Positions 39,988-52,848 of a stretch of DNA of 64,000 bases are shown here, piece by piece. The notes beneath the pieces are model-generated. The model made no database searches, was not told where the DNA came from, and saw nothing but the letters and a program-made list of their open reading frames with translations. Origin of the DNA: Pseudoclavibacter sp. AY1H1. Its GTDB lineage: Bacteria > Actinomycetota > Actinomycetes > Actinomycetales > Microbacteriaceae. Location of the stretch: the NCBI RefSeq assembly GCF_002931055.1, contig NZ_PSXX01000018.1, positions 1 through 64,000 on the forward strand. Reading direction: 5' to 3'. The translations under genes and the position numbers were made by a program. The first letter of the stretch is position 1. Each line of letters opens with the position of its first letter.

Positions 39988-40071
39988 GGGGCCTCGAGGA
40001 CCGTGTTGGTCCAACCAATCTCAGGCCGTCGAAGAGCTGAGCCAGCCGAGGCGACGCTGCCCTGAACAGCA

Positions 40072-40146
40072 GAAAGGCCCCGGCTTCACTGCGATTGCAG
40101 GGAAGTCAGGGCCTTTCGAGTGGCGGTGACGGTGGGATGTGAACCC
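40072..40146. repeat. Left island boundary: displaced tRNA-Ser 3' end and terminator (att repeat)
   Basis: This 75-bp stretch repeats 51043-51116 with only a few differences. It contains the terminator-like hairpin (GAAAGGCCC..GGGCCTTTC) and, at 40121-40146, the last 26 bp of tRNA-Ser including the CCA end. No complete tRNA follows. It is the expected scar of integration into a tRNA 3' end and marks the left end of an 11-kb island. About 100 bp of nothing recognisable follows before the integrase remnant. Confidence 0.8.
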
Positions 40147-40245
40147 CTATCGCATCCCAATGGCGGGCGGCTCGGATGCCGACTTGCCAGCAAATTAGGC
40201 ACATCTGCGCACAGCTATTCGCAGTGCGAAACACCTGCCAACAAC

Positions 40246-40682
40246 TCAACCTTTGTCAGATTCTTGTCGGATGAGGCTTTCGGCACGCTGCCGGTCCAAG
40301 GCCTCCGCGACGTCGTTCAAGTCGTCCTCAAACAGGTCGGCATAGCGGTCGAGTGCCATTGCCGCGCTGGCGTGCCCCACGCATGCGCTGCACCGCCTTC
40401 ACGTTCGCTCCTGCGCTGATCGCAAGTGATGCCGCCGCGTGGCGGAGATCGTGAGGTGTCACCCTTGGCATGATCAACGGCTCAGGCCTCTTCGCCTCCT
40501 TCGCTGCGGCAGCTGCCGTCTCGTCCTCGGCCCGGATGCGCTTGACCGCGCTGGTGAACCAGCCGGACACAGCGTTGCCAGGACGCAGGTAACCGCCCAT
40601 ACCGGCGGCCCAGAGGATCGCGTCGCCGGTCTTACCCTCGGTTGCCTGCCCTATGGCCTCATCGAGAAATGCTGGGTACGTT
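40246..40682 (-). pseudogene. int: Tyrosine recombinase (phage-type integrase), C-terminal part, frameshifted
   Basis: Starting near 40682, one minus-strand frame reads YPAFLDEAIGQ.. and later TPHDLRHAAASLAISAGANVKAVQRM, with the HxLRH motif. At about 40378-40384 a single extra G (ATGCGTGGGG for ATGCTGGGG) shifts the frame. The next frame continues LGHASAAMALDRYADLFEDD, carrying the LGH and the nucleophile Tyr, and ends ..IRQESDKG. The N-terminal half is missing, replaced by the end of a lipoprotein gene. It is therefore inactive. Its position beside the tRNA repeat identifies it as the integrase of this island. Confidence 0.85.
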
Positions 40683-40926
40683 CGAGCCCCGGGAGCACCC
40701 CGTCGACAAGGGTGTCAGGCTCGTGGCCGCAGAGACTCGGCACGTCGGCGGTGAGGAGTTGCTCGAGAGTGACCGCCGGCCCAGCGATCGGCGTACTCGA
40801 GGCTGTCTCTGCCGGAGCGGGCGGCCAATCCACCACGGTTTCCGTCGTGCACCCGACGAATGCCACGGTCAGCGCGAGAAGGCCAGTGAGCACTCCTGCC
40901 CGGTGCGAGATTCGCTGCATCGTCAC
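40651..40926 (-). pseudogene. Small lipoprotein gene, 3'-truncated at the integrase junction
   Basis: A 91-residue frame. The N terminus has a signal peptide of about 26 residues ending AFVGC, a plausible lipobox, then a Pro/Ala/Thr-rich linker and VPSLCGHEPDTLVDGVLPGLE. That block looks like the beginning of a folded domain. From about 40682 onward the frame runs into DNA that codes for the integrase remnant in another frame, so the last seven residues are not its own. It may still be expressed as a short lipoprotein. Confidence 0.5.
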
Positions 40927-41179
40927 GTGGCGGCCTAACGTCGATTGGGAGCAAGCCGAGCCATCCTGAAGAGAGCATCCAGAACGACCTCATGCGGCTC
41001 AGCCTATTGGTGCAGCCCTCTGCGTTTGCGCTGACCAAGGAGCATCTGAAGCGCATCCCGGAGCTCACAAAGTGAGCCGAGTGTGCATTTGCTGAACTCG
41101 CCTGCACCCGGATGGGAGCATCGCCCTACGGACGGCCGAGTCACCTTGGAATGTCGGTGATACCTCCAACACTGCACGT

Positions 41180-41539
41180 ATGTTCGAAGCACACGACCCA
41201 GGCGGCGAGATCAGCGTTGCCGAACTGGTTCCCTCCACCGAGGCCCTCGAGGCACTCACCCTGCGATGCGCCGAGGTGCGGTATCGCGGCATGCATGACC
41301 AAGAGCTGACCCGCGAGGTCACGTGGATGCCGCTCGTGACAGCACCTCGAGATGCTGCGTCATGGCTCCTGTGGTCGAGAGTCCCGCCGTGCTATCCGGA
41401 CGAGAGCCCGATCTTGCCGGTCCGGGGGTTGGGTGAGATGCGCGTCGTCGTCGATGGTGTCGCTTACCGATCTCGGCGCTACAACTATCTGACTGCGCGA
41501 TGGGATGAGCTCCCACAGGGCGGGTGGATGGCGTCGTGA
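41180..41539 (+). CDS. Hypothetical protein of the island
   Basis: A 119-residue protein without recognised domains. Codons show the high third-position GC of real genes (for example the first thirty codons). The sequence is mixed alpha/beta with a C-terminal basic/aromatic stretch (VAYRSRRYNYLTARWDELPQGGW). A small membrane protein gene overlaps its last 35 bp in another frame. No clear Shine-Dalgarno sequence is visible. The 250 bp before it (40927-41179) hold nothing I can identify. Confidence 0.45.
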   Translation: MFEAHDPGGEISVAELVPSTEALEALTLRCAEVRYRGMHDQELTREVTWMPLVTAPRDAASWLLWSRVPPCYPDESPILPVRGLGEMRVVVDGVAYRSRRYNYLTARWDELPQGGWMAS

Positions 41540-41684
41540 AGGGAAGTGCGTCCGCAAGACCAACCGAGGGCTGCGGTTGCTCGGCGCTGTTTGTCTCCTG
41601 GCCCTCTCTCTGGTCGTCACGATCCTTGTGAGTGCCGTTCTCTCGACGGGACGAGTCAGGACTGGCATCGACGCCGAGATCTGA
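41505..41684 (+). CDS. Small single-pass membrane protein (59 residues)
   Basis: ATG at 41505 opens a 59-codon frame in the +1 frame relative to the gene it overlaps. It has a basic N terminus (SHRAGGWRREGKCVRKTNRG), a strongly hydrophobic helix of about 24 residues (LRLLGAVCLLALSLVVTILV) and a short tail (STGRVRTGIDAEI). The positive-inside charge pattern supports a real membrane protein with the N terminus inside. The overlap with the preceding gene suggests translational coupling. No homologue is known to me. Confidence 0.4.
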   Translation: MSSHRAGGWRREGKCVRKTNRGLRLLGAVCLLALSLVVTILVSAVLSTGRVRTGIDAEI

Positions 41685-41747
41685 TGCATGCTGACGGTCC
41701 TCGTGATAACCGCGCGTGCGCGGGAGGCAGCTGGCTTCAGCGCCCTG

Positions 41748-42683
41748 TCATGGCGTGGTCTCCTGGTCGGCGGTCTCGGCAGCGATGGCGCGCCTCATGG
41801 TGACGGGGCTTGCGAAACCGCTGCGCAGTGCGACTTCGCTCAAGGGCAGACCAGGCATCTCGCGCTTCAACTCCAGTGCCTTCTGCACGCGTCGGGTACG
41901 AAGCATTCGGCCAGGAGTCGCCCCGGAACCGCGCAGTCGGCGTTCGAGGGCCCTGCGAGAGAGACCGGCTTCACGTGCGATTGCGTCGACGGAGAAGCTC
42001 GGGTCATGGAACCGGTTCTCGACGATCAGGTGAACGAGAGCGAATGTGTCTGTGTCTTCCTGGTTGGAAGAGTCTCTCGACTCGACGACCAAGGCAGTGG
42101 CTGCGGTCCTGAGGAGGGCGCGTAGAGAACTCGATGACTGCGGATTCGATGGTTGTGGTCTCTTCGCGGCAGCTTCCAGAAGGCCGAGCACGCTCTGCCG
42201 TACGATGCCGCCAGCGGAGTGGTGCCAGCTCAAGTGCGTGGAGTCCACTTCGCTCACGTCGAACGAGAAGAGCGTGACTTCGAACCCTCGATCCGCGTGC
42301 ATGACGACGCGTTCGGTGCCGGGCGGCACGATCGCCAGCTGCTTCGCCTCAAGCTCGATGCTGCGGTCTCCGGAGGTGATCACTAGCGACCCACGCTCGA
42401 GGAAGACGGCCAACCCCCGCCCGTGGGACCAGGAACGCTCACGCTTCCAAATGAAGTCGACAGGCGAGCACCTCCAATGCGCGACAACGTACTGGTCGAA
42501 GCGGAGGATCGTCACCTCCGTTGTGACGGATCCGGTCGGAGCGAACAGGTCAACGCCCGCTCTGAGCACCGAGTCGATAGAAGGAGGCAGCGGTCCTTTG
42601 TGCCGGAAGGAGTGTGCCTGATAGCCCGGAAACGAGCCCCAACCTCGGTCTTCGTCGTACTTGACGTTCGCGTTCTGCTCCAT
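41748..42683 (-). CDS. AraC-family regulator, island module 1
   Basis: A 311-residue AraC/XylS-type regulator. The N-terminal sensing half (GWGSFPGYQAHSFRHKGPLPP.., IVPPGTERVVMHADRGFEVTLFSFD) resembles an AraC-binding-like/cupin fold. The C-terminal DNA-binding half has two helix-turn-helices (FSVDAIAREAGLSRRALERRL; LSEVALRSGFASPVTMRRAI). It is clearly paralogous to the protein at 44183. The ATG at 42683 has AGGAG upstream. It is divergent from exported protein 1 across a 494-bp gap with three CTTCTCA-type sites. Confidence 0.85.
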   Translation of the reverse strand: MEQNANVKYDEDRGWGSFPGYQAHSFRHKGPLPPSIDSVLRAGVDLFAPTGSVTTEVTILRFDQYVVAHWRCSPVDFIWKRERSWSHGRGLAVFLERGSLVITSGDRSIELEAKQLAIVPPGTERVVMHADRGFEVTLFSFDVSEVDSTHLSWHHSAGGIVRQSVLGLLEAAAKRPQPSNPQSSSSLRALLRTAATALVVESRDSSNQEDTDTFALVHLIVENRFHDPSFSVDAIAREAGLSRRALERRLRGSGATPGRMLRTRRVQKALELKREMPGLPLSEVALRSGFASPVTMRRAIAAETADQETTP

Positions 42684-42912
42684 TGACTCTCCTGGCACAA
42701 TCGAATCCCGCGCACGGGGACAGCTCAACACCTGAGCATGCTCGCGCCCCCGCTTGGCGGGCAATGTTCGCGGGTGCTCAGCCGAAGAGTTGCACAGATA
42801 TCGGCCGAGCGCGGACCTGGTTCCAAGCGCGTACGCGCCGAGTCGTCATCGACAGCGCCTAACACCCGTGATGGCTTGCGCTCATCCTCCCTGGTCAGGC
42901 GCATCATCGCGT

Positions 42913-43021
42913 CCAGTCCGCTTCTCACTCGCTGATTCACTCGTGCTGCGCTTCCTTCTCACCAGTTCTTCTCACGGCCTCTCCCAGTCGCGCTGCGCTT
43001 CCTTCTCGCCAGTTCTTCTCA
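42913..43021 (+). repeat. Three tandem ~47-bp repeats with CCAGTTCTTCTCA, candidate AraC sites
   Basis: CCAGTCCGCTTCTCA (42913-42927), CCAGTTCTTCTCA (42962-42974) and CCAGTTCTTCTCA (43009-43021) are in one orientation. The CTTCTCA cores at 42921, 42968 and 43015 are exactly 47 bp apart. A 30-bp block GCTGCGCTTCCTTCTC(A/G)CC.. is repeated at 42945-42974 and 42992-43021. The array lies 157-265 bp before the start of exported protein 1. Spacing and place fit regulator-binding iterons. Confidence 0.65.
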
Positions 43022-43177
43022 AGAGCCCATTCGCATGTTCCTGGCTTCCTACGATTCATTGCGGACCTAAATTTCGACGTGCAGCGCCAAGCGCTGGCAC
43101 GGGCATCGATCTCCCCTCCCTCATCCCACGCGAGTGCGCCCGAAGCGGCGCTCGTTCTCGTCCTCGAAAGGACTCCG

Positions 43178-44023
43178 ATGTCAGACCCCACCCAAGACCC
43201 GACACCACGCACCTCCCCGGCCATCGTCGGGCGGCGCACACTCGTCGCCGGAGCCGCCTGGTCAATCCCCGTGATGGCCGTGGCCACCGCCGTGCCGCTC
43301 GCAGCAGCCTCAACCTGCCCGACAGCCGTCTTTGACGCTGCGTTCGTGACGAACTCGGACACTGGGTCGGTGAAGGTGCTGAACGCGACGAGCCCCGACA
43401 CAGCTGACACGTACACCGTGCGGATCACGTCAACGCTCGCCCCCGGAACGACGACCACGCAGAATGGCCAGTCCTACAACTTCAGTCAGAACGGCTCCGG
43501 CTGGAACGGCGACAATCCGGAAGACGGCAGCGGCGACTACACCTACTCCGGGTTCGGCCCGGCCGGCGCGATCGTGCTGAACCAGCGCAAGGAAGGCACC
43601 ACCGCGCCCATCGGCCCGGGCACGGACAGCCAGACGTTGACCTTCGAGTTCTTCGACGCAGCCGGTGCGCCAATCTCCGCCACGAACGTCGCGATCGACG
43701 TCTTCGACATCACCTCAGTTGTAGGGCAGATCTGGCGCGCGTCTTACTGGGACGCAGTTGGTTTCAGCGTCACGCCTGCGTCGATCGTTTCGGAGCCGAC
43801 GCTCGATCAGGGCGCAGGAACCGGTACGCTCGCCGACCCGTTCCGGAGAAGCGGCGGGCTCTTCCCCACCAACCCGATGGGGCAGGCGCAGTACCAGGAC
43901 GAGTTCCGCTTCGACTCGTTCCCGAACGGCAGCACCATGGACTACACGTCGTACAACGGTTACCAGGGATGGCATTTCATCGCCGTCAGCTCGATCAGGT
44001 TCACCGCGCAGATCGCCTGCTAA
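43178..44023 (+). CDS. Exported protein 1 with twin-arginine GAAWS signal
   Basis: A 281-residue secreted protein. The N terminus is a twin-arginine-like signal: GRRTLVAGAAWSIPVMAVAT then PLAAAS, with cleavage likely after AAA/AAS near residue 46. The mature part is Thr/Ser/Asn/Gly-rich and beta-strand-like, with no repeats, no LPxTG and no membrane anchor. One Cys follows the signal (STCP) and the last residue is Cys, which could link both ends by a disulfide. The function is unknown. It shares the signal type with proteins at 45715, 46491 and 51266, and is divergent from AraC module 1. Confidence 0.75.
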   Translation: MSDPTQDPTPRTSPAIVGRRTLVAGAAWSIPVMAVATAVPLAAASTCPTAVFDAAFVTNSDTGSVKVLNATSPDTADTYTVRITSTLAPGTTTTQNGQSYNFSQNGSGWNGDNPEDGSGDYTYSGFGPAGAIVLNQRKEGTTAPIGPGTDSQTLTFEFFDAAGAPISATNVAIDVFDITSVVGQIWRASYWDAVGFSVTPASIVSEPTLDQGAGTGTLADPFRRSGGLFPTNPMGQAQYQDEFRFDSFPNGSTMDYTSYNGYQGWHFIAVSSIRFTAQIAC

Positions 44024-44073
44024 GCCTTGGCTCCAGCGCTGAGCACCTCCCCCGGGTATCCCGTGCCGTAATG

Positions 44074-44110
44074 CAAGAGCCGCCCCGACGCATCGTCGGG
44101 GCGGCTCTTG
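44074..44110. terminator. Hairpin terminator between exported protein 1 and AraC module 2
   Basis: Perfect 17-bp arms at 44074-44090 and 44094-44110 with a 3-nt loop. It lies between convergent genes and can stop transcription from both sides. Confidence 0.8.
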
Positions 44111-44182
44111 GTACATGTGGGGCTTCTGGCACGACATCTGAGAACAACTGTCCCCGCATCCCGCCAGGGCGGTGAGCAACGG

Positions 44183-45112
44183 TCAGGACTCGAGGCTGGT
44201 GCGCTGCGAAGCGAGCGCTCGCCGCAGGGTCACAGGCGAGGAGAATCCGCTTCGCAGCGCGACCTCTCGAGCAGGTAGTCCCGGCTGTTCTCGCATCAGG
44301 GCTTCGGCGTTCTGGACGCGTCGCTCGCGGAGGATCGCGGCGGCGCTCGCGCCACCTGCCTGGAGGCGGCGCTCGAGGACTCTGCGTGTGAGGCCAGCTT
44401 CGCGGGCGATGCCGTCGACGGAGAAGCCCGGGACTTGGAATCGGTTCTCGACGATGAGCCTGACCAGAGCGAGCGTGTCGGTGTCTCGCAGGTTGGCGAC
44501 ATGCGTGGATTCGACCAGCAGCGAGTGAGCTGCAGCGCGCAGCAACGACCGCAGTGAGGTCGCGGCTTGCGGGTCCGAAACCGGCGTTGTTTTCGCGACT
44601 GCATCCAGAAGCGCGAGCACGCCCTGGCGAACCACGCCTCCGTCGGAGTGGTACCACCGGGTCTGCAGCGGCGCGAGCTCTGCAGCTGTGAAGGAGAAGA
44701 TGACGCCGGCGATCTTCTCGTCGGCGTGGAGGACGACGGGGCCGGCACCCGGTGGCACGATCGCGATCTGCGACGCCTCGAGCCGAAGCCTTCGCTGGTC
44801 GGAAGCCACCTCCAGCGACCCTTGCTCCAGGAACAGCACCAGAGCTCGCTCCTGGGCTGAGGCGCGCTCTCGCTTCCAGACAAGGTCGATCGCCGAGCTC
44901 TCGCCACGCACGACCAGGTACCGGTCGAAGCGCAGCAGCGAGGCCTCGATCGTCGCGGTGCCCGCGGGCGCACGCAGGTCCACGCCGGCCTTGAGCTCCT
45001 TGTCGACGCCAGGGGGCAGCGGGCCCCGGATTCTGAACTGCTGCGTCCGGTATCCAGGAAAGGGACTCCAGCCGGTGGCTTCGTTGTAGTGGGCACGAGC
45101 GACGCGCTCCAT
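44183..45112 (-). CDS. AraC-family regulator, island module 2
   Basis: A 309-residue paralogue of the module 1 regulator; the two align along their whole length (GW.PFPGYR..FRIRGPLPPGVD..LKAGVDLRAPAGTATIEA..LRFDRYLVVRG..). The C-terminal half has FSVDGIAREAGLTRRVLERRLQAGGASA and AREVALRSGFSSPVTLRRALA. It is divergent from exported protein 2 across a 602-bp gap. A 13-bp palindrome GTGTCAGTGACAC lies 38 bp upstream of its ATG (45150-45162), a possible operator. Confidence 0.85.
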   Translation of the reverse strand: MERVARAHYNEATGWSPFPGYRTQQFRIRGPLPPGVDKELKAGVDLRAPAGTATIEASLLRFDRYLVVRGESSAIDLVWKRERASAQERALVLFLEQGSLEVASDQRRLRLEASQIAIVPPGAGPVVLHADEKIAGVIFSFTAAELAPLQTRWYHSDGGVVRQGVLALLDAVAKTTPVSDPQAATSLRSLLRAAAHSLLVESTHVANLRDTDTLALVRLIVENRFQVPGFSVDGIAREAGLTRRVLERRLQAGGASAAAILRERRVQNAEALMREQPGLPAREVALRSGFSSPVTLRRALASQRTSLES

Positions 45113-45425
45113 GGGTCCTCCAGATCGATTCGAACGATGTGTCCCAGCGGTGTCAGTGACACTGGTCCCGCATTCACGCGGGAGTGATGGCGACAGGACT
45201 CAGCCGCGACGCGCGGCTCGAGCTGACCTGAGTCTCGGCTGCGTCAGAGAGAGGGACTCCCGCGGGCCAGCGAAGGGGTCCGTCGACCCGCAGGAGTCCA
45301 GCACGGATGGGTGGTGCGCGGATCTCCCCCGAGATCCCCGCGCGGACGCGGCTCCCCAGAGCACACCACCGACCGGCGGTAGTCAGAATGCCGCACGAAT
45401 TGTTGCTCTCATTTCACAAAGGCCC

Positions 45426-45630
45426 GATTGACGCAAAATGAGCGCAATTCGCCGCAAAAGGATCGCGCGAGATTTCTCGCACCCGCACCTCTCCAAACCC
45501 CCGTGCAATTCGAGCGGAGCCGTCGCGAATGCTCGCGTACCATTTCTTCCGCCGTTCTTTCTCTGAGCGCACGCGGAGCGCGTGAAGTAGATACCGTTCG
45601 GATTGACGCCTGATTCTCGGCGTGCAATTC
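45426..45630 (+). promoter_or_regulatory. Repeated elements before exported protein 2
   Basis: GATTGACGC occurs at 45426-45434 and 45601-45609. G(C/T)GCAATTC occurs at 45442-45450, 45503-45511 and 45622-45630. CGCAAAA also occurs twice near 45433-45459. These lie in the otherwise non-coding 602-bp gap between AraC module 2 and exported protein 2. The CTTCTCA motif of modules 1 and 3 is absent here. They are probably binding sites; the binding protein is unknown. Confidence 0.4.
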
Positions 45631-45714
45631 ATAGAGCCACCTCGCGTGCATCGTGATCGGTATCCGCAGGAAGTTCCCGTTGGAATGCCGGGGCTCAACA
45701 ACGAAAGGAAACTC

Positions 45715-46371
45715 ATGTCGGATTCTCTCGACAGCTCGAGCCAGGCCGACGCGCCAGGATCGATGAAGCGGCGCACGATCGTGGCCGGCGCTGCCTGGTC
45801 CATCCCCGTGATCGCCGTCGCGGCCGCAGCCCCGATGGCAGCGGCGTCCCCACCGTGCCCGCAGTTTGCGTCGGCGGCGAGCTGGACGGCAAGCACAACC
45901 GGTCAGTTGCGAGTGCACTCCGATCCGACCTACAACAACCGAGTTGGTGGGACATACCTCGCGCTGCCCGAGAACAACGCGAACTCGTTCCTGTCCGTGC
46001 AGGACAGGAACCTGCAGGGCGGCACCACGACCGTGCAGTGGTCGACGGTGTTCGTCCCGGTCAGCGGGACGGCCTACACCTTCACGTTCGTCACGAGCAC
46101 GAACACCGCGCTGACCGACTCGCAGACCCTGAACCTGCGCATCAACAGCACAACCCAGTGGGCAGGCATCACGAAGCCGACCGCCGGCGGCCCGACGAAC
46201 AACCTCAGCGGCCTGCAGACCCACTCATTCACCTGGACGGCCCCCAGCAACGCCGCCGTGACGTTCGCGATCGCTTTCCTCGTGCCAGGGGTGACCAACA
46301 ACCCCAACCGTACGAACGACGACATCCGGATCGGACTCCCCCGTATCTCCGCGGCCGGCTGCCGCTCGTAG
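45715..46371 (+). CDS. Exported protein 2 with twin-arginine GAAWS signal
   Basis: A 218-residue secreted protein. SMKRRTIVAGAAWSIPVIAV then AAAAPMAAAS is a twin-arginine-like signal nearly identical to that of exported protein 1. The mature domain (about 175 residues) is Thr/Asn-rich and beta-strand-like. As in protein 1, a Cys follows the signal (PPCP) and another lies three residues from the end (GCRS). GAAAGGA precedes the ATG at 45715; the frame is open upstream without signal-peptide logic. The function is unknown. Confidence 0.75.
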   Translation: MSDSLDSSSQADAPGSMKRRTIVAGAAWSIPVIAVAAAAPMAAASPPCPQFASAASWTASTTGQLRVHSDPTYNNRVGGTYLALPENNANSFLSVQDRNLQGGTTTVQWSTVFVPVSGTAYTFTFVTSTNTALTDSQTLNLRINSTTQWAGITKPTAGGPTNNLSGLQTHSFTWTAPSNAAVTFAIAFLVPGVTNNPNRTNDDIRIGLPRISAAGCRS

Positions 46372-46396
46372 CCTCGCAACGGGCATCTCGGGAACC

Positions 46397-46437
46397 GAGA
46401 AAGGGGGCCAAGACTGCTGCAGTCTTGGCCCCCTCTC
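46397..46437. terminator. Bidirectional terminator between exported proteins 2 and 3
   Basis: Arms 46403-46416 and 46420-46433 are perfectly complementary (14 bp) with a CTG loop, and flanking GAGA/TCTC extends the symmetry. It serves two convergent genes. Confidence 0.8.
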
Positions 46438-46490
46438 TGGTCTCACTGGTCCGGGATCTGCTCGAGCGCTCTGGCTGTTGACGCCAGGAG

Positions 46491-47120
46491 TCACGGCGTG
46501 GGGTACGTCGTGGTGTTCGTGTTGTTGATCGGGGTTGGGTTCCTGAATACCTGGACTGGGGTGGTGTTGACCGTCACGTAGCGGCGCGTGATCACGGTCT
46601 GACCGCTGTAGTACGGGCTTGGTGAGCGGAAGAAGAAGTCGACCGGGATGTTGGTCGTCGCCCCTGTCGCGGTCACGGTGCCGGTGTAGCTCGAGCGATA
46701 GACGCGGTAGGTGACGCCACCGACGACGGTCGTCGTGCCCGTGTTGGCGAGTGTCGACCACGCGGTGTTCGAGCCAGGGATCGGCGCGAAGGTCGGGGCT
46801 GGCCACCCGGTGGAGATGAGCACCTCGTAGTAGATGTTCGAGAGCACGTCTCCGGGCTGTGTTCCTGCCACCCGCAGATACTGCCCCGGGCTCTTCGCGT
46901 CGTACTGGAGCGCGCCGTTGGTCGACGACCCCTGCGTCGCTGGATACCAACCCACGCCGAAGCCGGACTGGATCTCGAACGTTCGCGGCGGCGATGCCGC
47001 GAATGCTGGAGCTGCGGTGGTCATCGCGATCACCGGCACCGTCCAGGCCGCCGTCTGCAAGACCCGACGACGCGTCGTGTCCCCGGCCGCGCCGTGGTTC
47101 TCAGAGGTGTTCTTTGTCAA
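46491..47120 (-). CDS. Exported protein 3 with twin-arginine signal
   Basis: A 209-residue secreted protein. DTTRRRVLQTAAWTVPVIAM then TTAAPAFAAS gives a twin-arginine signal with an AFA-A cleavage site, a variant of the signal in the other exported proteins (AAW.VPV.A). The mature part is Thr/Tyr/Pro-rich, with no Cys; it ends in a Thr/Asn-rich tail (NPTPINNTNTTTYPTP). The function is unknown. AraC module 3 lies upstream on the same strand, 348 bp away, and two CTTCTC-type sites lie about 230-270 bp before the ATG. Confidence 0.72.
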   Translation of the reverse strand: MTKNTSENHGAAGDTTRRRVLQTAAWTVPVIAMTTAAPAFAASPPRTFEIQSGFGVGWYPATQGSSTNGALQYDAKSPGQYLRVAGTQPGDVLSNIYYEVLISTGWPAPTFAPIPGSNTAWSTLANTGTTTVVGGVTYRVYRSSYTGTVTATGATTNIPVDFFFRSPSPYYSGQTVITRRYVTVNTTPVQVFRNPTPINNTNTTTYPTP

Positions 47121-47351
47121 TGTGTGCTCTTTCTCTGTCGCTGAAACGAGGTCGCGAATAGACCACGGCGGTCCACTTGAACGAGACCGTGAGGGATTAT
47201 TGGCAAACTGCCATCGGTCGGAGATCCCAGGTCATTACTGCATTGCATCTCGGCACGAACGCAAGTTCGCTACCACCAAGCGCGAGGTCTGCTTTTGATG
47301 AAACCGCAACCCCTCCTGCAAGCTATCCGACCAGTCATCGAGCTTCAATCT

Positions 47352-47389
47352 GGGAGAAGAATCAGCACTCAGATTGAGAAGCACTGACC
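47352..47389 (-). promoter_or_regulatory. Two CTTCTC direct repeats upstream of exported protein 3
   Basis: On the minus strand GGTCAGTGCTTCTCA (47375-47389) and TGATTCTTCTCCC (47352-47364) are direct repeats with CTTCTC cores 22 bp apart, two helical turns. This matches the usual AraC-family site geometry and the motif found before module 1. Confidence 0.55.
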
Positions 47390-47468
47390 ACATGAGCGGT
47401 TCGCTTTCTGATAACGACCGACTTTCCGGTCGGTCTTTCTCAGCGAGTGGGAATGTGAGCGTCAGCGC

Positions 47469-48494
47469 TCAGATCCGAGCGATGCCAGACTCGCCTGCAG
47501 AGATGTCCGACTGGGCTTCGCTCTCGCTGTCCGAGAGCCCATCGAGGGCGCGACGCATGGCACGCACCGAGCCGAAACCGGCAGCCGCAGCGATGCGCTT
47601 CAGATCTTGGGTGTCGACGTCACCGAACTCCCCCGGTGCCTCCAACAGGTCTCGCGCGAGCCGAGTTCGAACCCGTCGAAGCTGAGAGGCCGGCGTCAGG
47701 TTTGTGTCTTCGTAAGCCCGATACAGACTCGCCGTGGAGACTCCGAGGTCGCGTGCGAGCCTGCCAGCGTCGAAGGTGACGTCGCTAGCGGAGGCTTCGA
47801 TGCGCTGCGACGCCCGCCGCAGCAACGATGTCGTGACCCCAGGACTGCTGCGCCCTGTTCCCGAGGAGCCAGCTCGACGGCTTCGCGTGGCGCGAGCCGG
47901 GACATCATCCGCCAGCACGCCGGCGAAGAGATGATCCAACCCCGCTCGGACGCGATGGAACCCGGCTCCGTCCACGGCCGTCAGAGAGTTCAACGCAGAG
48001 TGCGCCGCACTGGTGAAGATCTCCTTGTGGGCATTCGAGGACCCGAAGAGTCCCGACTTCGGCAGGGGTGCGTGCCCCTCAGCGTCGCGGAGGTCCGTCC
48101 ACTTCGACACGAAGAGCAGACGAGCGGCTGGCTCGTGCGCGGTGATCCCCAGGGGCTCATTGAACGACTGCACGTGCATTTGACCTGGGCTGAGCTGCAC
48201 CTGGGCTGCGTCCGACGTCACCGTCTGCGTCCCTTCGATACCCACCACAGCGTGGAACATGGAGTTCGGTGCGCTGCTGGTTGCAGTGAAGGAGAAGGCA
48301 GCCGGAGTGTGCCAGATCCTTCCGATCGCGAAGGTATCCGTCCGGATGAGGTCGGCGACCAACTGGAAGCGCGAACTCAGCGGCGCAACCTCCCACCCGA
48401 GGGACCCGATCCACTGGATTGCCGCGTCCCCGTCCAGGATGAGCTCCCGCGTGACGGTGCCTGTCGGGGGGACGAGACGGCTCGCATCGTGCAC
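47469..48494 (-). CDS. AraC-family regulator, island module 3
   Basis: A 341-residue AraC-like regulator, more distant from the other two. The N-terminal half has an AraC-binding-like beta-rich part (SAPNSMFHAVVGIEGTQTVTSDAAQVQLSPGQMHVQ). The C-terminal helix-turn-helix region reads FDAGRLARDLGVSTASLYRAYEDTNLTPASQLRRVRTRLA, and a second HTH includes RIAAAAGFGSVRAMRRAL. It starts with GTG after GGAGG. A CCAGAACTTCTCA site lies directly before its ribosome-binding site. Confidence 0.8.
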   Translation of the reverse strand: MHDASRLVPPTGTVTRELILDGDAAIQWIGSLGWEVAPLSSRFQLVADLIRTDTFAIGRIWHTPAAFSFTATSSAPNSMFHAVVGIEGTQTVTSDAAQVQLSPGQMHVQSFNEPLGITAHEPAARLLFVSKWTDLRDAEGHAPLPKSGLFGSSNAHKEIFTSAAHSALNSLTAVDGAGFHRVRAGLDHLFAGVLADDVPARATRSRRAGSSGTGRSSPGVTTSLLRRASQRIEASASDVTFDAGRLARDLGVSTASLYRAYEDTNLTPASQLRRVRTRLARDLLEAPGEFGDVDTQDLKRIAAAAGFGSVRAMRRALDGLSDSESEAQSDISAGESGIARI

Positions 48495-48507
48495 CTTTCA
48501 CCTCCAG

Positions 48508-48688
48508 TGAGAAGTTCTGGCAAGCGTAAGTGTCGGAAAACGCATGTTTCGGGTCCGAATGCGAGCGCTGACACGGAATCCGTCACGTGCGGGTCTGTTT
48601 TGCGTCACATGTGCGTCCGATGTGGCGCAAAATGGCTGGTCGTGCATGACTCGACCAGTCCTTCTCAATTTTGTGACAGTTCTTCTCA
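48508..48688. promoter_or_regulatory. CTTCTCA sites upstream of AraC module 3
   Basis: On the minus strand CCAGAACTTCTCA is at 48508-48520. On the plus strand CCAGTCCTTCTCA (48655-48667) and ACAGTTCTTCTCA (48676-48688) have CTTCTCA cores 21 bp apart. Between them TTTTGCG (48598-48604) and CGCAAAA (48626-48632) form a spaced inverted repeat. The 397-bp gap holds no gene. It divides the regulator from the rightward HEPN-like gene. Confidence 0.55.
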
Positions 48689-48891
48689 AGCGCCACATAC
48701 ACAGTCCAACAATCCCCGAGATCGCTTGACGAGGTGGCGGCGACGCAGGTAATGGATCCGCCGCTCAGGGGACGCCCCTGGCACGTCCTGGCGACGATCC
48801 ACGTCGTGCCGCGCAGTGGGCCGCCCTTGAAGAGCGTCACAGACCGAGCCACAGACTCACACCCCTGGAGCAGGCCCAATAAGGTGTCGCT

Positions 48892-50007
48892 ATGTCTGAC
48901 GCAAGGAAGCCGACGCCCCGATGGTCCGACCCGGTGTGGACGAAGGACATGAGCTATCGCTTCGTCAACGTTGGGGATGCGCCTGCGTTCGATGTCGTCA
49001 TTCTGGGCGAAGCGCGCGTTGACCCGTTCTCGGGCTTCCCTCCGAGCCACGTCCCGAAGACACACATCGGCATGGTCCCGCCGGGTAAGTCCATAGATGT
49101 CACCGCGCAGGTGGCCGACAACACCTGGGGCGATCGACCAGCGGAAGCGAGCAAGGGATCTGTGGGCTGGCCGCCGATAGCACCCCTCCTGACACTCGCA
49201 TGGAACACCGACCGTGGCTGGAAACCCGACCGAACTGAGGATGAGCCCCTACTTCCATACGGGCTGCCGGATGACCCGCGACAGTGCTACCGGCAAATGA
49301 TCATGCCGATGAATCAAATGCCGGCGAAGCAATCGCGCGTCCGGCGAACGAGGGCATCAGCGCGACGGGACGCGGCGGAGGAGCAGTTCGTGCAGTTCGA
49401 ACGAGTGCTCAACGTCTTTCTTTCGAGCGCGGACGCGTTGAGCCGTGCCCTCGAGGACTGGTCGGCCAACACCCCGCACGGTCGTGCACTCCTGGGCGAC
49501 GACGCCGAGGCGCAGTCTCGAGCTCGGGCCAAGCTGCGCCAGGACCTTGACGGCCCGACGCTCGCGATGTTCACCTCGTTGGCAATGCTGCGCGATCATG
49601 CCAAGGCGCTGCGCGCGTACTGCGATGAGGATGCTCGAGCGGAGATCCAGAGCACCCATGACAAGGCGCGACGCGAGCATCCGTTCAGCCACCACGCCGA
49701 GACCGTTCGGAACTTTCTGGCCCACAAGGCGCTGTTGGATTGGGTTATCAGCTACGCGTACAGCACGCAGCAGCTCGAGATAGAGGTCGACTTGCAACCG
49801 ATCCTCGACTGGGCGAGAACCCGCGACCGGAATCGCACGGAGGCTGCAAACGTGATGTTCGCGGAGTTCATCAAGGACTACGGCGATTCTGGCTGGGGTC
49901 CGAACGTCTCGTTCCAGGAGTGGATCGATCAGACTCTTGGCGGAAACAAGCACGCCATGCTGCTCACGTATCGACGCGCTTGGGAAGCGGTTGCACAGAT
50001 GCCCTGA
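48892..50007 (+). CDS. Hypothetical protein with HEPN-like RNxxxH motif
   Basis: A 371-residue protein of unknown family. Residues 1-130 are beta-rich (YRFVNVGDAPAFDV.., PPSHVPKTHIGMVPPGKSIDV, LAWNTDRGWKP). A basic linker follows (about 145-160), then a wholly alpha-helical C-terminal half. There AETVRNFLAHKALLDW shows Arg273-Asn274-x3-His278, the RNxxxH form of the HEPN ribonuclease motif, in a helix as expected. HEPN proteins act as RNA-cutting toxins or defence effectors. AAGGTG precedes the ATG. It is island cargo next to a broken methylase-like gene. Confidence 0.55.
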   Translation: MSDARKPTPRWSDPVWTKDMSYRFVNVGDAPAFDVVILGEARVDPFSGFPPSHVPKTHIGMVPPGKSIDVTAQVADNTWGDRPAEASKGSVGWPPIAPLLTLAWNTDRGWKPDRTEDEPLLPYGLPDDPRQCYRQMIMPMNQMPAKQSRVRRTRASARRDAAEEQFVQFERVLNVFLSSADALSRALEDWSANTPHGRALLGDDAEAQSRARAKLRQDLDGPTLAMFTSLAMLRDHAKALRAYCDEDARAEIQSTHDKARREHPFSHHAETVRNFLAHKALLDWVISYAYSTQQLEIEVDLQPILDWARTRDRNRTEAANVMFAEFIKDYGDSGWGPNVSFQEWIDQTLGGNKHAMLLTYRRAWEAVAQMP

Positions 50008-50046
50008 AGCTAGCCCCCGAGGCGCGCTCGCTCCGTGCGAGCGCGG

Positions 50047-50725
50047 TCAGCGTGTGCGCCGGCGGCGAGTTTCCTTGGCACCGCGAATACCGTGCTGCTT
50101 TCGCTCGCGCTTCGTGCGCCCGAGGTTCGCGTACGGCAATGCGAGGGCACTGTCGATCAGTGCAGCCCTCACGTCAGCGCGTAGCCCGGAGGTGAATGCG
50201 TCGAGCATGTCCAACTCCGCTGTTTGGGGGTCGGGTGTCGCAGCGTAGTGCGCCCAGAGCTGGTCCGGATCGAGGAGCTTGATCGGCCACCCTCCGCCGT
50301 GCGGTGTTCGCGCGCGGAGCCGGTGATCGTAGAACGGCATGGGACTCAGCGACGTACTGGGCCTTCTCCATGCCGGCCCACGGCAGGAAGAAGGTGAAGT
50401 GCTGGTCGATCTCTCGGATCGGGAAGCCGATCGTCTCCTTCGTCTTCGTGTCATGCGCGATCAGATCGGCGTAGTCGGTAACGATGACGAAGCGAGTACT
50501 GAAGCGCACGACGGCGGGTGTGGCCTTGAGATCCTCAATGAGAGTCAATGGGTCGTTGCCGGTTTTTTTGAAGTACACGATGCTCTTCTGCGCAACCTCC
50601 TGAGCCGAATCGACAGCCACGTTGAGCGACCCGTTGCGAAGCCTCGTGACGCTACTTTGCGACCTTCCGTAGGCGAGCAGCAGATCGAACATGAACTCAC
50701 GATCGTAGCTTTCCCGGCCAGCCAA
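50047..50725 (-). pseudogene. Frameshifted remnant resembling the N terminus of a restriction methylase
   Basis: The minus strand from a TTG at 50725 reads MAGRESYDREFMFDLLLAYG.. and TRFVIVTDYADLIAHDTKTK..FTFFLPWAGMEKAQY. The VxTDy..L..yD.kt and FFLPWAGME pattern is like the N-terminal part of large MmeI/type IIL-like DNA methylase-endonucleases. Near 50340 the coding sense passes to a second frame (MPFYDHRLRARTPHGGGWPI.. to 50047). The methylase motifs (GxG, NPPY) and the catalytic centre are not present, so most of the gene is lost. The family assignment is tentative. Confidence 0.5.
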
Positions 50726-51006
50726 CGGGGCGACTCGCTCCTCTCCTCATCTCTGAGGCACACCAGCTCTCGCGAGCAACCATCAACACCCACTGGGGCA
50801 TGTCTTGATCTGCGGCACTGTACCGCCCCCTCGCGGCGACCTGACGTCACAACGAGGACTGGGCGAGTGACTGCCAAGCCTGCGGCACATGCGCAGACTG
50901 CGCCGGCGCTCGACAGCCATCACGGCACTACTCTCGTCAAACCGACGAGGCACAACCAAAGCTCCTTGCGGCCCCTGCGCCTCCCAACCGAGCTCACATA
51001 GGTCTT

Positions 51007-51026
51007 GCCAGATTCTTGTCGGACGA
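51007..51026 (-). pseudogene. Second integrase 3'-end fragment at the right island boundary
   Basis: These 20 bp match 40255-40274, the last codons of the integrase remnant (..IRQESDK), at 18 of 20 positions and in the same orientation. Only this scrap is left; the tRNA-side repeat begins 17 bp further on. The 280 bp to its left (50726-51006) contain no recognisable gene. Confidence 0.5.
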
Positions 51027-51042
51027 CCGTTCGCGACAAAGC

Positions 51043-51116
51043 GAAAGGCCCCGACTCCACTGCGATGCAGGGAAGTCAGGGCCTTTCAGATGGCGGTGAC
51101 GGTGGGATTTGAACCC
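51043..51116. repeat. Right island boundary: att repeat overlapping tRNA-Ser 3' end
   Basis: The partner of 40072-40146. GAAAGGCCC (51043-51051) and GGGCCTTTC (51079-51087) form the stem of the terminator that follows the leftward tRNA gene, and the rest is the tRNA 3' end. The pair of repeats encloses the island. Confidence 0.8.
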
Positions 51117-51180
51117 ACGGTAGAGTCGCCCCTACACAACATTTCGAGTGTTGCACCTTCGGCCGCTCGGACACGTCACC
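51091..51180 (-). tRNA. serU: tRNA-Ser (anticodon CGA)
   Basis: The minus strand folds as a 90-nt class II tRNA. The acceptor stem is GGTGACG/CGTCACC with G discriminator and encoded CCA; the anticodon stem is CAACA/TGTTG with loop CTCGAAA (anticodon CGA, reading UCG); a long variable arm (GTAG..CTAC) and a T arm with GTTCAAATC complete it. It is the integration target of the island on its left. Confidence 0.93.
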
Positions 51181-51265
51181 GTGAGGAATCTTATACCGAG
51201 ACCAGGGGTGCGCCGCAAATCGAGCCGCCCAGGCGTGTTCTCGAGAGGCCAGCCGGAGCGGACTC

Positions 51266-51724
51266 TTAGACGATCGGGATCTGGAACGTCTCGGTGAAGG
51301 GCGGCAGCGCCACCGTCGACACGTAGGAGACGTTGGCCCCTGACGGTCCGGTGACCCGGAAGTTCGCGACCAGTGTGGTGACGCCGGAGTCGACGGTGGC
51401 GGTGAAGCTGCCATCTCCGTTGTCCGTGAGGACACCGCCCGTGATGGCCGTGTTCACGATCGTGACGCCGGCATCCGGCGTGATGACCACCTTGGAGTTG
51501 TCGGGGAGTACGGAGTCGTTGCCGTCTCCGTCATCGCCCGTGAGCGTGAACCGGGCGACGTTCCCGCTCACGACGCTCGTCGACCCACCCGTGTACCAGG
51601 TGTTCGCGAGAGGAACGGGCGTCGAGGCCACGGCGATGGGCGCGGCGACCGTGATGGCCACGGCCGGGACGGACCAGGCTGCGCCGGCCAGAAGGGTACG
51701 ACGGGAAGTGCTGTCAGCAGACAC
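51266..51724 (-). CDS. Exported protein 4 with twin-arginine GAAWS signal
   Basis: A 152-residue secreted protein from a GTG start. TSRRTLLAGAAWSVPAVAIT then VAAPIAVAS is the same type of signal as in the island proteins. The mature part is one beta-rich Ig-like domain (ARFTLTGDDGDGNDSVLPDN.., FTATVDSGVTTLVANFRVTG), similar in style to bacterial Ig-like/invasin domains. It lies outside the island, 85 bp from the tRNA, so the family is native to this genome and not limited to island cargo. The function is unknown. Confidence 0.65.
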   Translation of the reverse strand: MSADSTSRRTLLAGAAWSVPAVAITVAAPIAVASTPVPLANTWYTGGSTSVVSGNVARFTLTGDDGDGNDSVLPDNSKVVITPDAGVTIVNTAITGGVLTDNGDGSFTATVDSGVTTLVANFRVTGPSGANVSYVSTVALPPFTETFQIPIV

Positions 51725-51876
51725 GAGGATCCTGTTCGAGAGGGGGAAGCACGCAGGGGGCTGGACGAGTCGGCAGATGGGGAATCGGCTCGGCCAGGTG
51801 GATAATCGCACGCGCGAGAGGGTTCGCGTTACCCCTTGCATTTCGACGTCACAAAACGTATGCGGCCTCGACCGGT

Positions 51877-52848
51877 CTACCGACGCGTTTCGGTCTCGAT
51901 CAGGCGCACAGCTCCCGCGTCGATGCGGAGATCAAGCGTGCAGGCGGCCCGGCCCGGGCCGCGGAGCTCCTCGCCGTCGGCGTAGACGAGCACGCCCTTC
52001 GGCACCAGCACGCGGATGCCCGTCAGGCGCTCGAAGGTGACGGCCGGGAGGCGCGTGTGCAGGCCGGCCATGGCGAGTGGGAAGAGCGTGAGCAGGCCGA
52101 TCCTCGGGAGCCCGCCGACGACGAACAGGTCGAGGAGCCCGTCGTCGATGACCGCGTGCGGCGCGACTGCGATGCCGCCGCCGATCGACGAGCCGTTCAG
52201 CACCGTGAGCATCTCGGCGGTGACCGACTCGGCAGGGCCGCCATCGATCCGAACACCGAACTCGAGCGGCTCGAAGTGCCGCACGGACTCCAGCAGGGCG
52301 GCGATGTAGCGGGCCGTTCCCGGCAGACGCCGCAGCTCGTTGGCGCGCCGATTCACGACGGCGTCGAAGCCGACGTTGACCGAGTTGATGGCCACATGCT
52401 CGGCGCCGTCGAGCACCAGTCGCATCGCGTCGACGCTCCGGGTGCTCGCGGTGCCGGTGCGCAGCGCGGTGAGCATCCGCTCGATGCCGACTGCTGGCAC
52501 GCCGCGTTCGATCCCGGCGGCTCGAGCGAAGTCATTGCCTGTGCCAGATGGCACGACCCCGAGAGGGACCTCGGTGCCCGCGACGAGGCCGGCCCCCATC
52601 GACACCATGCCGTCCCCGCCCTGCACGATGAGCGCATCGGGGCGACGCTCCCCACCGAGCTCGGCCGCGGCCTGGCGTCGCAGCTCCTCGAACGAGTCGG
52701 CCGCCACGAGCACGACCTCGAGATCCGGCGAGGAGGCGGCGCCAGCTCCCCCGGCGAGGCGCCTGCCGAGGTGCGCGGATGCGCCCAGCCCAGCCGCCGG
52801 GTTCACCACGTACAGGACTCTCTGCGCTCGCACGAGCCCATTCTGCAC
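51877..52848 (-). CDS. Diacylglycerol/lipid kinase family protein (YegS/DagK type)
   Basis: A 323-residue lipid kinase. VLYVVNPAAGLG at the N terminus, LIVQGGDGMVSM (GGDG nucleotide motif), GVVPSGTGNDFARAAG and the later SIGGGIAVAPHAVIDDGLLDLFVV are hallmarks. The family phosphorylates diacylglycerol or similar lipids. GTG starts at 52848 or 52833 are both possible. It is divergent from radA. Confidence 0.88.
   Translation of the reverse strand: MQNGLVRAQRVLYVVNPAAGLGASAHLGRRLAGGAGAASSPDLEVVLVAADSFEELRRQAAAELGGERRPDALIVQGGDGMVSMGAGLVAGTEVPLGVVPSGTGNDFARAAGIERGVPAVGIERMLTALRTGTASTRSVDAMRLVLDGAEHVAINSVNVGFDAVVNRRANELRRLPGTARYIAALLESVRHFEPLEFGVRIDGGPAESVTAEMLTVLNGSSIGGGIAVAPHAVIDDGLLDLFVVGGLPRIGLLTLFPLAMAGLHTRLPAVTFERLTGIRVLVPKGVLVYADGEELRGPGRAACTLDLRIDAGAVRLIETETRR

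What the first reader, a model, noticed from the sequence alone, without database searches (positions are those of the whole stretch)
41748..48494. Three AraC regulator / exported-protein modules in series: candidate undescribed system
AraC-1 with exported protein 1 and AraC-2 with exported protein 2 are divergent pairs with paralogous members in both positions; a third exported protein and a more distant AraC follow. All exported proteins share an RRxxxxxAAWxxPV signal but have unlike mature domains. This looks like a duplicated, diversifying set of regulated secreted proteins, with one output per sensor. I know of no named system with this make-up.
Basis: partly seen in the sequence, partly recalled or inferred. 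Interest (0 to 1): 0.85.

Follow-up and report, generated by a model that had tools for sequence, protein, structure and literature searches.

The report
Candidate regulated secretome with own peptidase
In this actinobacterium (a Pseudoclavibacter relative) about 35 mostly unrelated secreted proteins share one unusual export tag and many sit beside their own regulator gene; in its bacterial family the tag tends to occur together with an extra signal-cutting enzyme, which points to an undescribed protein-sorting system.

Summary
The three AraC/exported-protein modules are real and part of something larger. The genome (a Pseudoclavibacter relative) has 35 places with the same Tat-type signal, RR-x7-W-xx-P-x8-P-xxxx-S, on mature domains of about 20 families. 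Of its 25 HTH_18 AraC places, 12 lie within 2 kb of such a signal; 0.7 are expected.

The signal is conserved as protein, not DNA. A distinct Cys-insert type I signal peptidase is associated with it: in 199 Microbacteriaceae genomes all 13 with this peptidase have the signal, against 9 of 186 without; in 396 order-level genomes, 17 of 24 against 64 of 372. Both genes lie within 10 kb in 14 of 38 peptidase-positive genomes, in three families. In Pseudoclavibacter the peptidase sits in an exopolysaccharide locus.

Best explanation: Tat-exported surface or matrix proteins, matured by a dedicated peptidase and switched singly by local AraC (or large LuxR-type) regulators. It works like PEP-CTERM/exosortase or SipW/TasA but belongs to neither. 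Export, cleavage, regulation and polysaccharide association are inferred. The pairing is not exclusive: six order-level genomes with 6-11 signals lack the peptidase. AraC pairing looks densest in this genus.

The parts
41748..42683 (-).
   Evidence: HTH_18 51.2 bits, AraC_binding 22.0 bits; 55% identical to AraC-2; sequence
42684..43177 (.). 494-bp divergent intergenic region AraC-1/Exp1 (candidate operator region). It holds a 47-bp tandem duplication, one copy of which lies in an insertion that the G007 orthologue lacks
43178..44023 (+). Exp1: AAW-signal exported protein (281 aa); mature all-beta domain (237 aa) of the C10_43178/C1_518743/C1_503640 family
   Evidence: signal; paralogues; model pLDDT 78, pTM 0.83
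44183..45112 (-). AraC-2, group A
   Evidence: HTH_18 43.7 bits; orthologue 90% identical in Pseudoclavibacter sp. AY1F1
45113..45714 (.). 602-bp divergent intergenic region AraC-2/Exp2
45715..46371 (+). Exp2: AAW-signal exported protein (218 aa); among the 139 mature rows compared, its domain matched only the G007 orthologue
   Evidence: weak sub-cut-off similarity to TIGR04362 choice_anch_C
46491..47120 (-). Exp3: AAW-signal exported protein (209 aa, TTG start); mature domain all-beta, weakly CBM3/TTHA1873-like, of a family seen in G000, G001, G002, G005 and G007
47469..48494 (-). AraC-3, group B, same direction as Exp3 and upstream of it
   Evidence: HTH_18 34.4 bits; group-B paralogues
51266..51841 (-). 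Fourth AAW-signal gene of the window (signal at 51623-51712; short mature domain of 119 aa; nearest AraC hit 2.8 kb away). The real start is probably near the signal, not at 51841

Best explanation
The window holds part of a genome-wide, many-to-one protein-sorting system. (1) About 35 secreted proteins with unlike mature domains (the two modelled are all-beta) carry one constrained Tat-type signal peptide, the 'AAW signal' (shown by sequence). (2) They are exported by Tat (inferred from the twin arginines) and cut before a near-invariant Ser by a dedicated type I signal peptidase. That enzyme forms a clade separate from the presumed housekeeping one, with a class-specific Cys insert (inferred from co-distribution and linkage). 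(3) The peptidase gene lies in an exopolysaccharide locus in Pseudoclavibacter, so the products most likely end up in or on the polysaccharide layer as matrix or surface proteins (inferred). (4) Many substrates sit beside their own cytosolic regulator, usually an AraC of two paralogous groups, in some cases a large LuxR-type (MalT-like) protein. The regulator most likely senses a small molecule or state and switches its neighbour, so that the cell chooses which surface protein to put out (inferred from adjacency). Regulators and outputs have been re-paired during evolution: the same output family occurs with different AraC groups.
For: Own-genome census: 25 HTH_18 places and 35 signal places at E<=4.9e-4; 12 of 25 AraCs within 2 kb of a signal against 0.71 expected, binomial p~1e-12, and 8 of 19 AraC clusters against 0.7.

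Signal: over 139 rows from eight genomes (one gene counted twice at a locus end) R4 100%, R5 99%, W13 99%, P16 100%, P25 100%, +1 S30 100% of the 137-139 rows aligned there (rows were found by a profile, so partly by construction). Identical residues use the same codon at 0.31 against 0.332 expected, and S30 is TCN in 26 and AGY in 6 of 33 own-genome rows: constraint at protein level, old. The 35 mature parts of the own genome fall into 20 families.

Peptidase: orthologue (E<=1.2e-63) in exactly the 7 of 40 relatives with 3 or more signals. Family set: 13 of 13 with it have signals, 9 of 186 without; Fisher p 6e-15. Order set: 17 of 24 against 64 of 372; p 5e-8. Of the 8 order-level genomes whose best signal has E<=1e-11 (a threshold chosen after seeing the list), 7 have it; G377 does not. 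Separate clade from four presumed housekeeping enzymes, 100/100. Cys insert matched by pattern in 16 of 16 family-level rows (one a broken copy) and 0 of 4 presumed housekeeping rows. A signal lies within 10 kb of it in 14 of 38 peptidase-positive genomes, from families f1, f6 and f7.

Exopolysaccharide locus in the own genome: sugar transferase TIGR03025, tyrosine autokinase TIGR01007, LCP, Wzy_C, phosphatase, GH114 over their cut-offs. In genus g59 the peptidase is not in such a locus, yet signals are many (15, 15, 7), so the tie looks closer to the peptidase than to the locus. Modules 1-3 are conserved in G007.
Against: The pairing is not exclusive. Signals at E<=1e-5 occur without the peptidase in 9 of 22 (family) and 64 of 81 (order) signal-positive genomes, and 7 of 24 order-level peptidase genomes show no signal. 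At order level, of the 8 genomes with more than 5 signals only two (G000, G427) have it; G257 (6), G276 (11), G315 (8), G333 (8), G518 (9) and G547 (8) do not, though their best signal scores are weaker (best E 8e-10 to 6e-9). So number of signals and peptidase go together in the family, not in the order. The Fisher values ignore shared ancestry. In the own genome the only signal place on the peptidase's contig is a 48-aa ORF about 25 kb away. 18 of 35 own-genome signal genes have no AraC within 2 kb. Outside the genus AraC pairing looks less common: 1 of 22 best-scoring signal loci with up to 1.5-kb flanks (L248-L269); in longer regions pairs within 2 kb were seen in G020, G090, G108, G111 and G209. 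No conserved operator was found. The Cys insert is missing by pattern in 2 of the 8 order-search loci scanned, and a third gave no readable peptidase ORF. No cleavage, export or binding data exist.
Confidence: 0.5

Rival explanations
1. Ordinary Tat secretome: the AAW signal is just the common Tat signal style of these actinobacteria, cut by the housekeeping peptidase. The extra peptidase is an exopolysaccharide-locus gene that merely travels with surface-rich species.
For: AAW-like signals occur in many order-level genomes without the peptidase (64 of 81), six of them with 6 to 11 signals. In fetched own-genome sequence (433 kb summed over regions, overlaps included, and chosen around AraC and AAW genes, so biased; 347 called genes) a crude scan found 13 AAW and 6 other RR-start N-termini; by inspection only two of the six look like plain Tat signals and one is a near-AAW variant.
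Against: W13, P16, P25 and +1 Ser at fixed spacing go beyond what Tat is recalled to need. All 13 family-level peptidase genomes have signals, and all 9 family-level genomes with more than 5 signals have the peptidase. Linkage within 10 kb in three families. In g59 the peptidase is outside the exopolysaccharide locus and signals are still many.
Confidence: 0.32
2. Dedicated peptidase and signal are real, but the AraC/LuxR neighbours are not per-gene switches: AraC genes and exported genes merely accumulate in the same variable, lower-GC islands.
For: GC of 40001-52000 is 62.6-65.8% per 2 kb against 64.5-71.6% in the rest of the window. Two of the three AraC genes were missed by a coding-score gene caller. 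Pairing looks less common outside the genus.
Against: 12 of 25 AraCs within 2 kb in 8 separate clusters. Divergent or co-directional spacing of a few hundred bp recurs in G000, G001, G002, G005, G007 and G130. The three intergenic regions with short coding flanks are 83-90% identical to G007 where aligned, but that also fits close relatedness of the two genomes.
Confidence: 0.3
3. Secreted antagonists or recognition factors (toxin-like or kin-recognition outputs) in diversifying loci, not matrix proteins.
For: High diversity of mature domains, 20 families among 35; no Pfam hit over the cut-off in the four exported proteins of the window.
Against: No immunity-gene-like partner was noticed among the recurrent neighbours listed (60 clusters, many of them out-of-frame ORFs; seven inspected). 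PADLOC finds no hit in Exp1, Exp2 and Exp3. The two modelled folds are all-beta without a confident enzymatic match.
Confidence: 0.1

Closest known systems
PEP-CTERM / exosortase (EpsH) system (Haft et al. 2006, PMC1569441; passages read)
   Same: Many unlike secreted proteins marked by one short signal; a sorting enzyme usually encoded among exopolysaccharide genes; single-gene substrates preceded by large intergenic regions; substrates scattered over the genome; the evidence is a phylogenetic profile.
   Different: There the signal is C-terminal and the enzyme a multi-spanning exosortase in bacteria with an outer membrane, and one sigma-54 regulator set serves many substrates in Proteobacteria. 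Here the signal is an N-terminal Tat-type signal, the enzyme a type I signal peptidase in a monoderm, and regulators are local and numerous.
GlyGly-CTERM / rhombosortase (Haft and Varghese 2011, PMC3237569; abstract and outline read)
   Same: Many-to-one pairing of a short signal with a distinct protease subfamily; protease and target often adjacent when targets are few, far apart otherwise.
   Different: C-terminal anchor signal and a rhomboid protease.
SipW / TasA-TapA of Bacillus (recalled; search listing only)
   Same: A dedicated signal peptidase for biofilm-matrix proteins (recalled).
   Different: SipW is recalled to be an ER-type peptidase acting on Sec-type signals and encoded with its substrates. 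The enzyme here matches the bacterial model TIGR02227 (95.8 bits, cut-off 47) and the substrates are Tat-like and scattered.
AraC/XylS regulators with HTH_18 (PF12833)
   Same: C-terminal HTH_18 domain over the cut-off in all three.
   Different: Weak N-terminal sensor-domain matches (two of three under the cut-off) and HTH_18 matches that stop at profile position 65-70 of 80; expanded and paired with exported genes.

Membership tests
AraC/XylS regulators | C-terminal HTH_18 (PF12833) over the gathering score | tested here: met
   51.2, 43.7 and 34.4 bits against 33.6
AraC/XylS regulators | N-terminal AraC_binding (cupin-like) domain over the gathering score | tested here: inconclusive
   AraC-1 22.0 against 21.1 met; AraC-2 14.6 under 21.1; AraC-3 20.3 under 27 for AraC_binding_2
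Tat substrates | Twin-arginine n-region, hydrophobic h-region, AxA-type cleavage region | tested here: met
   R4 100%, R5 99%, A29 93% over 139 rows
Tat substrates | Export depends on TatC | not testable with these tools
   needs a mutant
Type I signal peptidase (S26, TIGR02227/PF10502) | Model score over the cut-off; Ser and Lys motifs present | tested here: met
   95.8 bits against 47 and 95.0 against 22.9; PSASM and VKRVIA stretches in the sequence (their role as catalytic motifs is recalled)
PEP-CTERM/exosortase system | C-terminal PEP motif, TM helix and basic tail on substrates | tested here: not met
   the four window exported proteins end without such a tail (sequences, by inspection); the shared signal is N-terminal
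PEP-CTERM/exosortase system | Exosortase (EpsH) gene in the genome | not tested
   no exosortase search was run; none matched among the locus proteins scanned
PEP-CTERM/exosortase system | Sorting enzyme gene among exopolysaccharide genes | tested here: met
   own genome annotated; homologues of these genes recur beside it in g1, g8, g12 and g82, not in g59
SipW/TasA system | Substrates match TasA/camelysin or SipW-dependent signal models | tested here: not met
   no NCBIfam hit over the cut-off for the four exported proteins of the window
SipW/TasA system | Peptidase of the archaeal/ER type (defining feature recalled) | tested here: not met
   best NCBIfam model is bacterial TIGR02227
LPXTG/sortase surface proteins | LPXTG-type tripartite C-terminus | tested here: not met
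   absent from the four window proteins by inspection

The most novel reading that the evidence does not exclude
A previously undescribed protein-sorting system of Micrococcales: a Tat-type N-terminal sorting signal (RR-x7-W-xx-P-x8-P-xxxx|S) recognised by its own type I signal peptidase with a two-cysteine insert. It delivers a large, exchangeable set of polysaccharide-associated surface proteins, many under their own local sensor-regulator, so that the cell can swap its coat protein by protein.
Probability: 0.4. Interest if true: 0.85.

Novelty: new variant of a known kind. Interest (0 to 1): 0.7.

Why it matters
No dedicated processing enzyme for a class of Tat substrates came up in the listings of the nine full-text searches made here (open-licence PMC papers only). 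If true, it would give monoderm actinobacteria a counterpart of PEP-CTERM/exosortase, explain dozens of unannotated secreted proteins in some genomes, and make the question of how one genome chooses among many surface proteins directly testable in a regular set of regulator-output pairs.

Tried and rejected
Mature domains of Exp1 and Exp2 as paralogues: rejected, no similarity. The 47-bp tandem repeat upstream of Exp1 as an AraC operator: rejected as a conserved site, because the G007 orthologue lacks the insertion that holds one copy; no direct repeat was found upstream of Exp2 or Exp3. Recent duplication of a signal cassette as the general cause of signal similarity: not supported by the codon test. 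Defence system: no PADLOC hit beyond HTH-level similarity of AraC-1 and AraC-3 to mads_1 and a type IIG remnant nearby. Fold identification: Exp1 gave no PDB match with E<=0.001; Exp3 gave two, both TTHA1873 of unknown function, with TM-scores about 0.4, then weak CBM3 matches, so 'CBM-like' is a lead only. Alignment A3 mixed strands and was discarded; peptidases were re-extracted. The search for related loci in genome contigs found a single relative.

Limits of counts: the family-level search scored at most 41 and the order-level search at most 20 signal candidates per genome, and both match lists were cut, so counts and linkage there are lower bounds. Adjacency outside the own genome uses regions picked around AraC, signal or peptidase hits, so only the own-genome count is free of that choice. 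The 16 rows of A2 were chosen by sequence similarity, but after the census had been seen; the statistic used therefore rests on the family-independent HTH_18 census. Some of the 35 own-genome signal places are short or doubtful: C3:9056 (48 aa), C12:270301 (87 aa), C22:111165 and C1:503640 (incomplete motif). Only the four exported proteins of the window were scanned against Pfam and NCBIfam.


Full report
Where this is. The window is G000:C10:1-64000 of a 4.20-Mb genome in 25 contigs. A 90% identical AraC-2 orthologue lies in Pseudoclavibacter sp. AY1F1 (NZ_PSTQ01000001.1), so the source is a Pseudoclavibacter relative (Microbacteriaceae). G007 is probably that strain: its contig C1 has the same length, 908,092 bases.

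The observation. Three AraC genes and three exported-protein genes lie at the stated place. Modules 1 and 2 are divergent (494 and 602 bp between the genes). Module 3 is co-directional (AraC-3 then Exp3). Start codons of Exp1 (43178), Exp2 (45715), AraC-1 (42683) and AraC-2 (45112) follow Shine-Dalgarno-like stretches. All three AraCs pass HTH_18. AraC-1 and AraC-2 are paralogues (55%), but mature Exp1 and Exp2 are not. A fourth signal gene at 51266-51841 is not in the finding.

Genome-wide census. HTH_18 finds 25 AraC-type places. A profile of 14 signals finds 39 places at E<=10, of which 35 at E<=4.9e-4. Of the 25 AraCs, 12 lie within 2 kb of one of the 35 signals (between listed match positions) against 0.71 expected; in 19 AraC clusters, 8 have a pair against 0.7. 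Sixteen of the AraCs were grouped by sequence. By gene-to-gene gap, 13 of these 16 are within 2 kb of a signal gene, two more within 2.3 and 3.1 kb, and the last (C3:40839-41837) lies about 6 kb from the extra peptidase gene. Seen from the other side, 17 of 35 signal genes are within 2 kb of an AraC-profile hit and 18 are not.

Outputs and regulators are mixed. The Exp1 family occurs beside a group-A AraC (C10) and within 1.2 kb of a group-B AraC (C1:516540). The Exp3 family occurs beside group B (C10:47469, C12:278214) and group A (C23:97667). A third output family occurs beside an AraC (C23:127665) and beside large LuxR-type proteins (C10:64606 and C23:19552). Both of the latter pass the GerE cut-off. 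The C10 one resembles MalT with sub-cut-off STAND/AAA matches; the C23 one shows no such match. A comparison of ORFs near signals, of which seven clusters were inspected, showed AraC and LuxR-type proteins as recurrent regulators.

The signal. Over 139 rows of eight genomes (one gene twice) the pattern R4-R5-x7-W13-xx-P16-x8-P25-xxxx-S30 is almost without exception, with A29 at 93%. The rows were collected with a profile, so part of this is by construction. However, the 14 seed rows were picked by a pattern that did not ask for P25, A29 or S30, and P25 and S30 were invariant in them at fixed distance. Codon choice at identical residues is random (0.31 against 0.332 expected), and S30 uses TCN in 26 and AGY in 6 of 33 own-genome rows, so the signal has been held by selection on the protein for long (two of the 35 lacked the full motif and were left out, and one of the 33 is out of register). 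The 35 own-genome mature parts form 20 families by single linkage at 1e-5, and all 139 rows form 50.

The extra peptidase. A type I signal peptidase gene recurs beside signal genes in G001, G005, G007 and G020. The own genome has it at C3:33857-34591, besides another, presumably housekeeping one at C19. Among 40 relatives, orthologues (E<=1.2e-63) occur in G000, G001, G002, G005, G007, G016 and G020, exactly the genomes with 3 or more signals (31, 24, 15, 11, 39, 3, 9). Apart from a broken G007 copy the next best match is 7.6e-30. Of the other 33 one (G035) has a single marginal signal. Among 199 Microbacteriaceae genomes, 13 have it (E<=1e-35) and all 13 have signals; of 186 without it, 9 have one to five signals; all 9 genomes with more than five signals have it (Fisher p 6e-15). 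Among 396 order-level genomes, 24 have it (E<=1e-40, query from G209), 17 of them with signals; of 372 without it, 64 have signals (p 5e-8). These p-values ignore ancestry.

Against this, at order level number and peptidase do not go together. Of 8 genomes with more than five signals only G000 and G427 have it; G257, G276, G315, G333, G518 and G547 (6, 11, 8, 8, 9, 8 signals, with weaker best scores) do not. With the best-score threshold tightened to 1e-11 after seeing the list, 7 of 8 genomes have it (G377 lacks it). The signal class is therefore wider than the peptidase. When I checked the report I had not weighed these signal-rich exceptions; for them I lowered the best explanation from 0.55 to 0.50 and the novel case from 0.45 to 0.40, and raised the 'ordinary Tat' rival from 0.27 to 0.32.

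Linkage. By the coordinates, a signal lies within 10 kb of the peptidase in 14 of the 38 distinct peptidase-positive genomes: G001, G002, G005, G007, G020, G090, G111, G209, G283, G295, G398, G437, G446 and G511, in families f1, f6 and f7. 31 of the 38 have any signal at the threshold. The own genome is not among the 14.

Nature of the enzyme. It scores 95.8 bits to TIGR02227, keeps the PSxSM and KR stretches recalled as the Ser and Lys motifs, and forms a clade apart from four presumed housekeeping enzymes (100/100, branch length 1.2; the tool warned that long branches meet). An insert with the pattern DCxxxPxxxRC is in all 16 family-level rows (one of them a broken G007 copy) and in none of the 4 others. 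Among eight order-search loci (one of them the own gene again), five match, two do not, and one gave no readable ORF.

Context. In the own genome the enzyme sits among a polyprenyl sugar transferase, tyrosine autokinase, Wzy_C, phosphatase, LCP, GH114 and PqqD proteins, all over their cut-offs, and a kinase-like protein without a hit over its cut-off. Homologues of parts of this set recur beside it in other g1 genomes and in g8, g12 and g82. In g59 it stands instead beside genes that I recognise from sequence as ribosomal-protein and rpoA genes (recalled, no family search), yet these genomes have 15, 15 and 7 signals. The signal thus seems to follow the enzyme rather than the polysaccharide locus.

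Pairing outside the genus. Among 22 best-scoring signal loci with up to 1.5-kb flanks one (G130) has an AraC hit. In longer regions pairs within 2 kb were seen in G020, G090, G108, G111 and G209; G108 has no extra peptidase at the threshold.

Mature domains. Models of Exp1 (pLDDT 78, pTM 0.83) and Exp3 (81.5, 0.79) are all-beta. Exp1 has no PDB match with E<=0.001. Exp3 matches TTHA1873 (unknown function) with E 1e-4 and TM about 0.4, then weakly CBM3. This fits surface or carbohydrate-binding proteins but does not show it.

Most likely mechanism. Shown: the shared signal, the pairing statistics, the separate peptidase clade, the co-distribution and linkage. Inferred: Tat export, cutting before S30 by the extra peptidase, a place in the polysaccharide layer, and control of each output by its neighbour. 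The main weakness is non-exclusivity at order level.

What is known. The nearest systems are PEP-CTERM/exosortase (PMC1569441, passages) and GlyGly-CTERM/rhombosortase (PMC3237569, abstract and outline), with the same logic but C-terminal signals and other enzymes, and SipW/TasA (recalled). The listings of nine full-text searches showed nothing on this signal, on a dedicated peptidase for Tat substrates, or on AraC pairing in this genus (no other paper was opened).

Verdict. A real pattern, larger than described; if the reading is right, a new variant of the known kind 'sorting signal with dedicated processing enzyme', with an unusual regulator-per-substrate layer that is densest in this genus.

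Noticed in passing
window 50174-50725 (-): ORF of 183 aa matching only the MmeI N-terminal domain / type IIG restriction enzymes, apparently a remnant.
   Followed up: no
G000:C10:64606-65322 and 65581-68154 (just past the window end): Another AAW-signal gene directly beside a large LuxR-type (MalT-like) regulator; similar pairs in G001, G002, G005 and G007.
   Followed up: partly
window about 42830-42970: An insertion holding one copy of a 47-bp tandem duplication upstream of Exp1, absent from the G007 orthologue.
   Followed up: partly
G007:C28:105517-105780 (L131, L283): A broken second copy of the extra signal peptidase in the same polysaccharide/AAW island.
   Followed up: no
G002:C5:254421-256453 (L137): Three AraC-profile hits in tandem without any AAW signal in the fetched 15 kb.
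   Followed up: no
G000:C12:279628-280305 and 334511-335182: Two closely similar AAW proteins (mature parts E about 1e-103) about 54 kb apart, one within 0.5 kb of an AraC and one not near any.
   Followed up: no
G000:C1:408942, C1:515145, C12:267808, C21:68487, C21:70399: Five AAW proteins with glycine-rich mature domains; two lie in tandem at C21 without an AraC within 2 kb.
   Followed up: no
window 48892-50007 (+): ORF of 371 aa between AraC-3 and the restriction remnant with no Pfam hit over the cut-off.
   Followed up: no
G276, G518, G547, G315, G333, G257 (order level): Genomes with 6 to 11 AAW-like signals but no extra peptidase at E<=1e-40; worth checking for another processing enzyme.
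   Followed up: no
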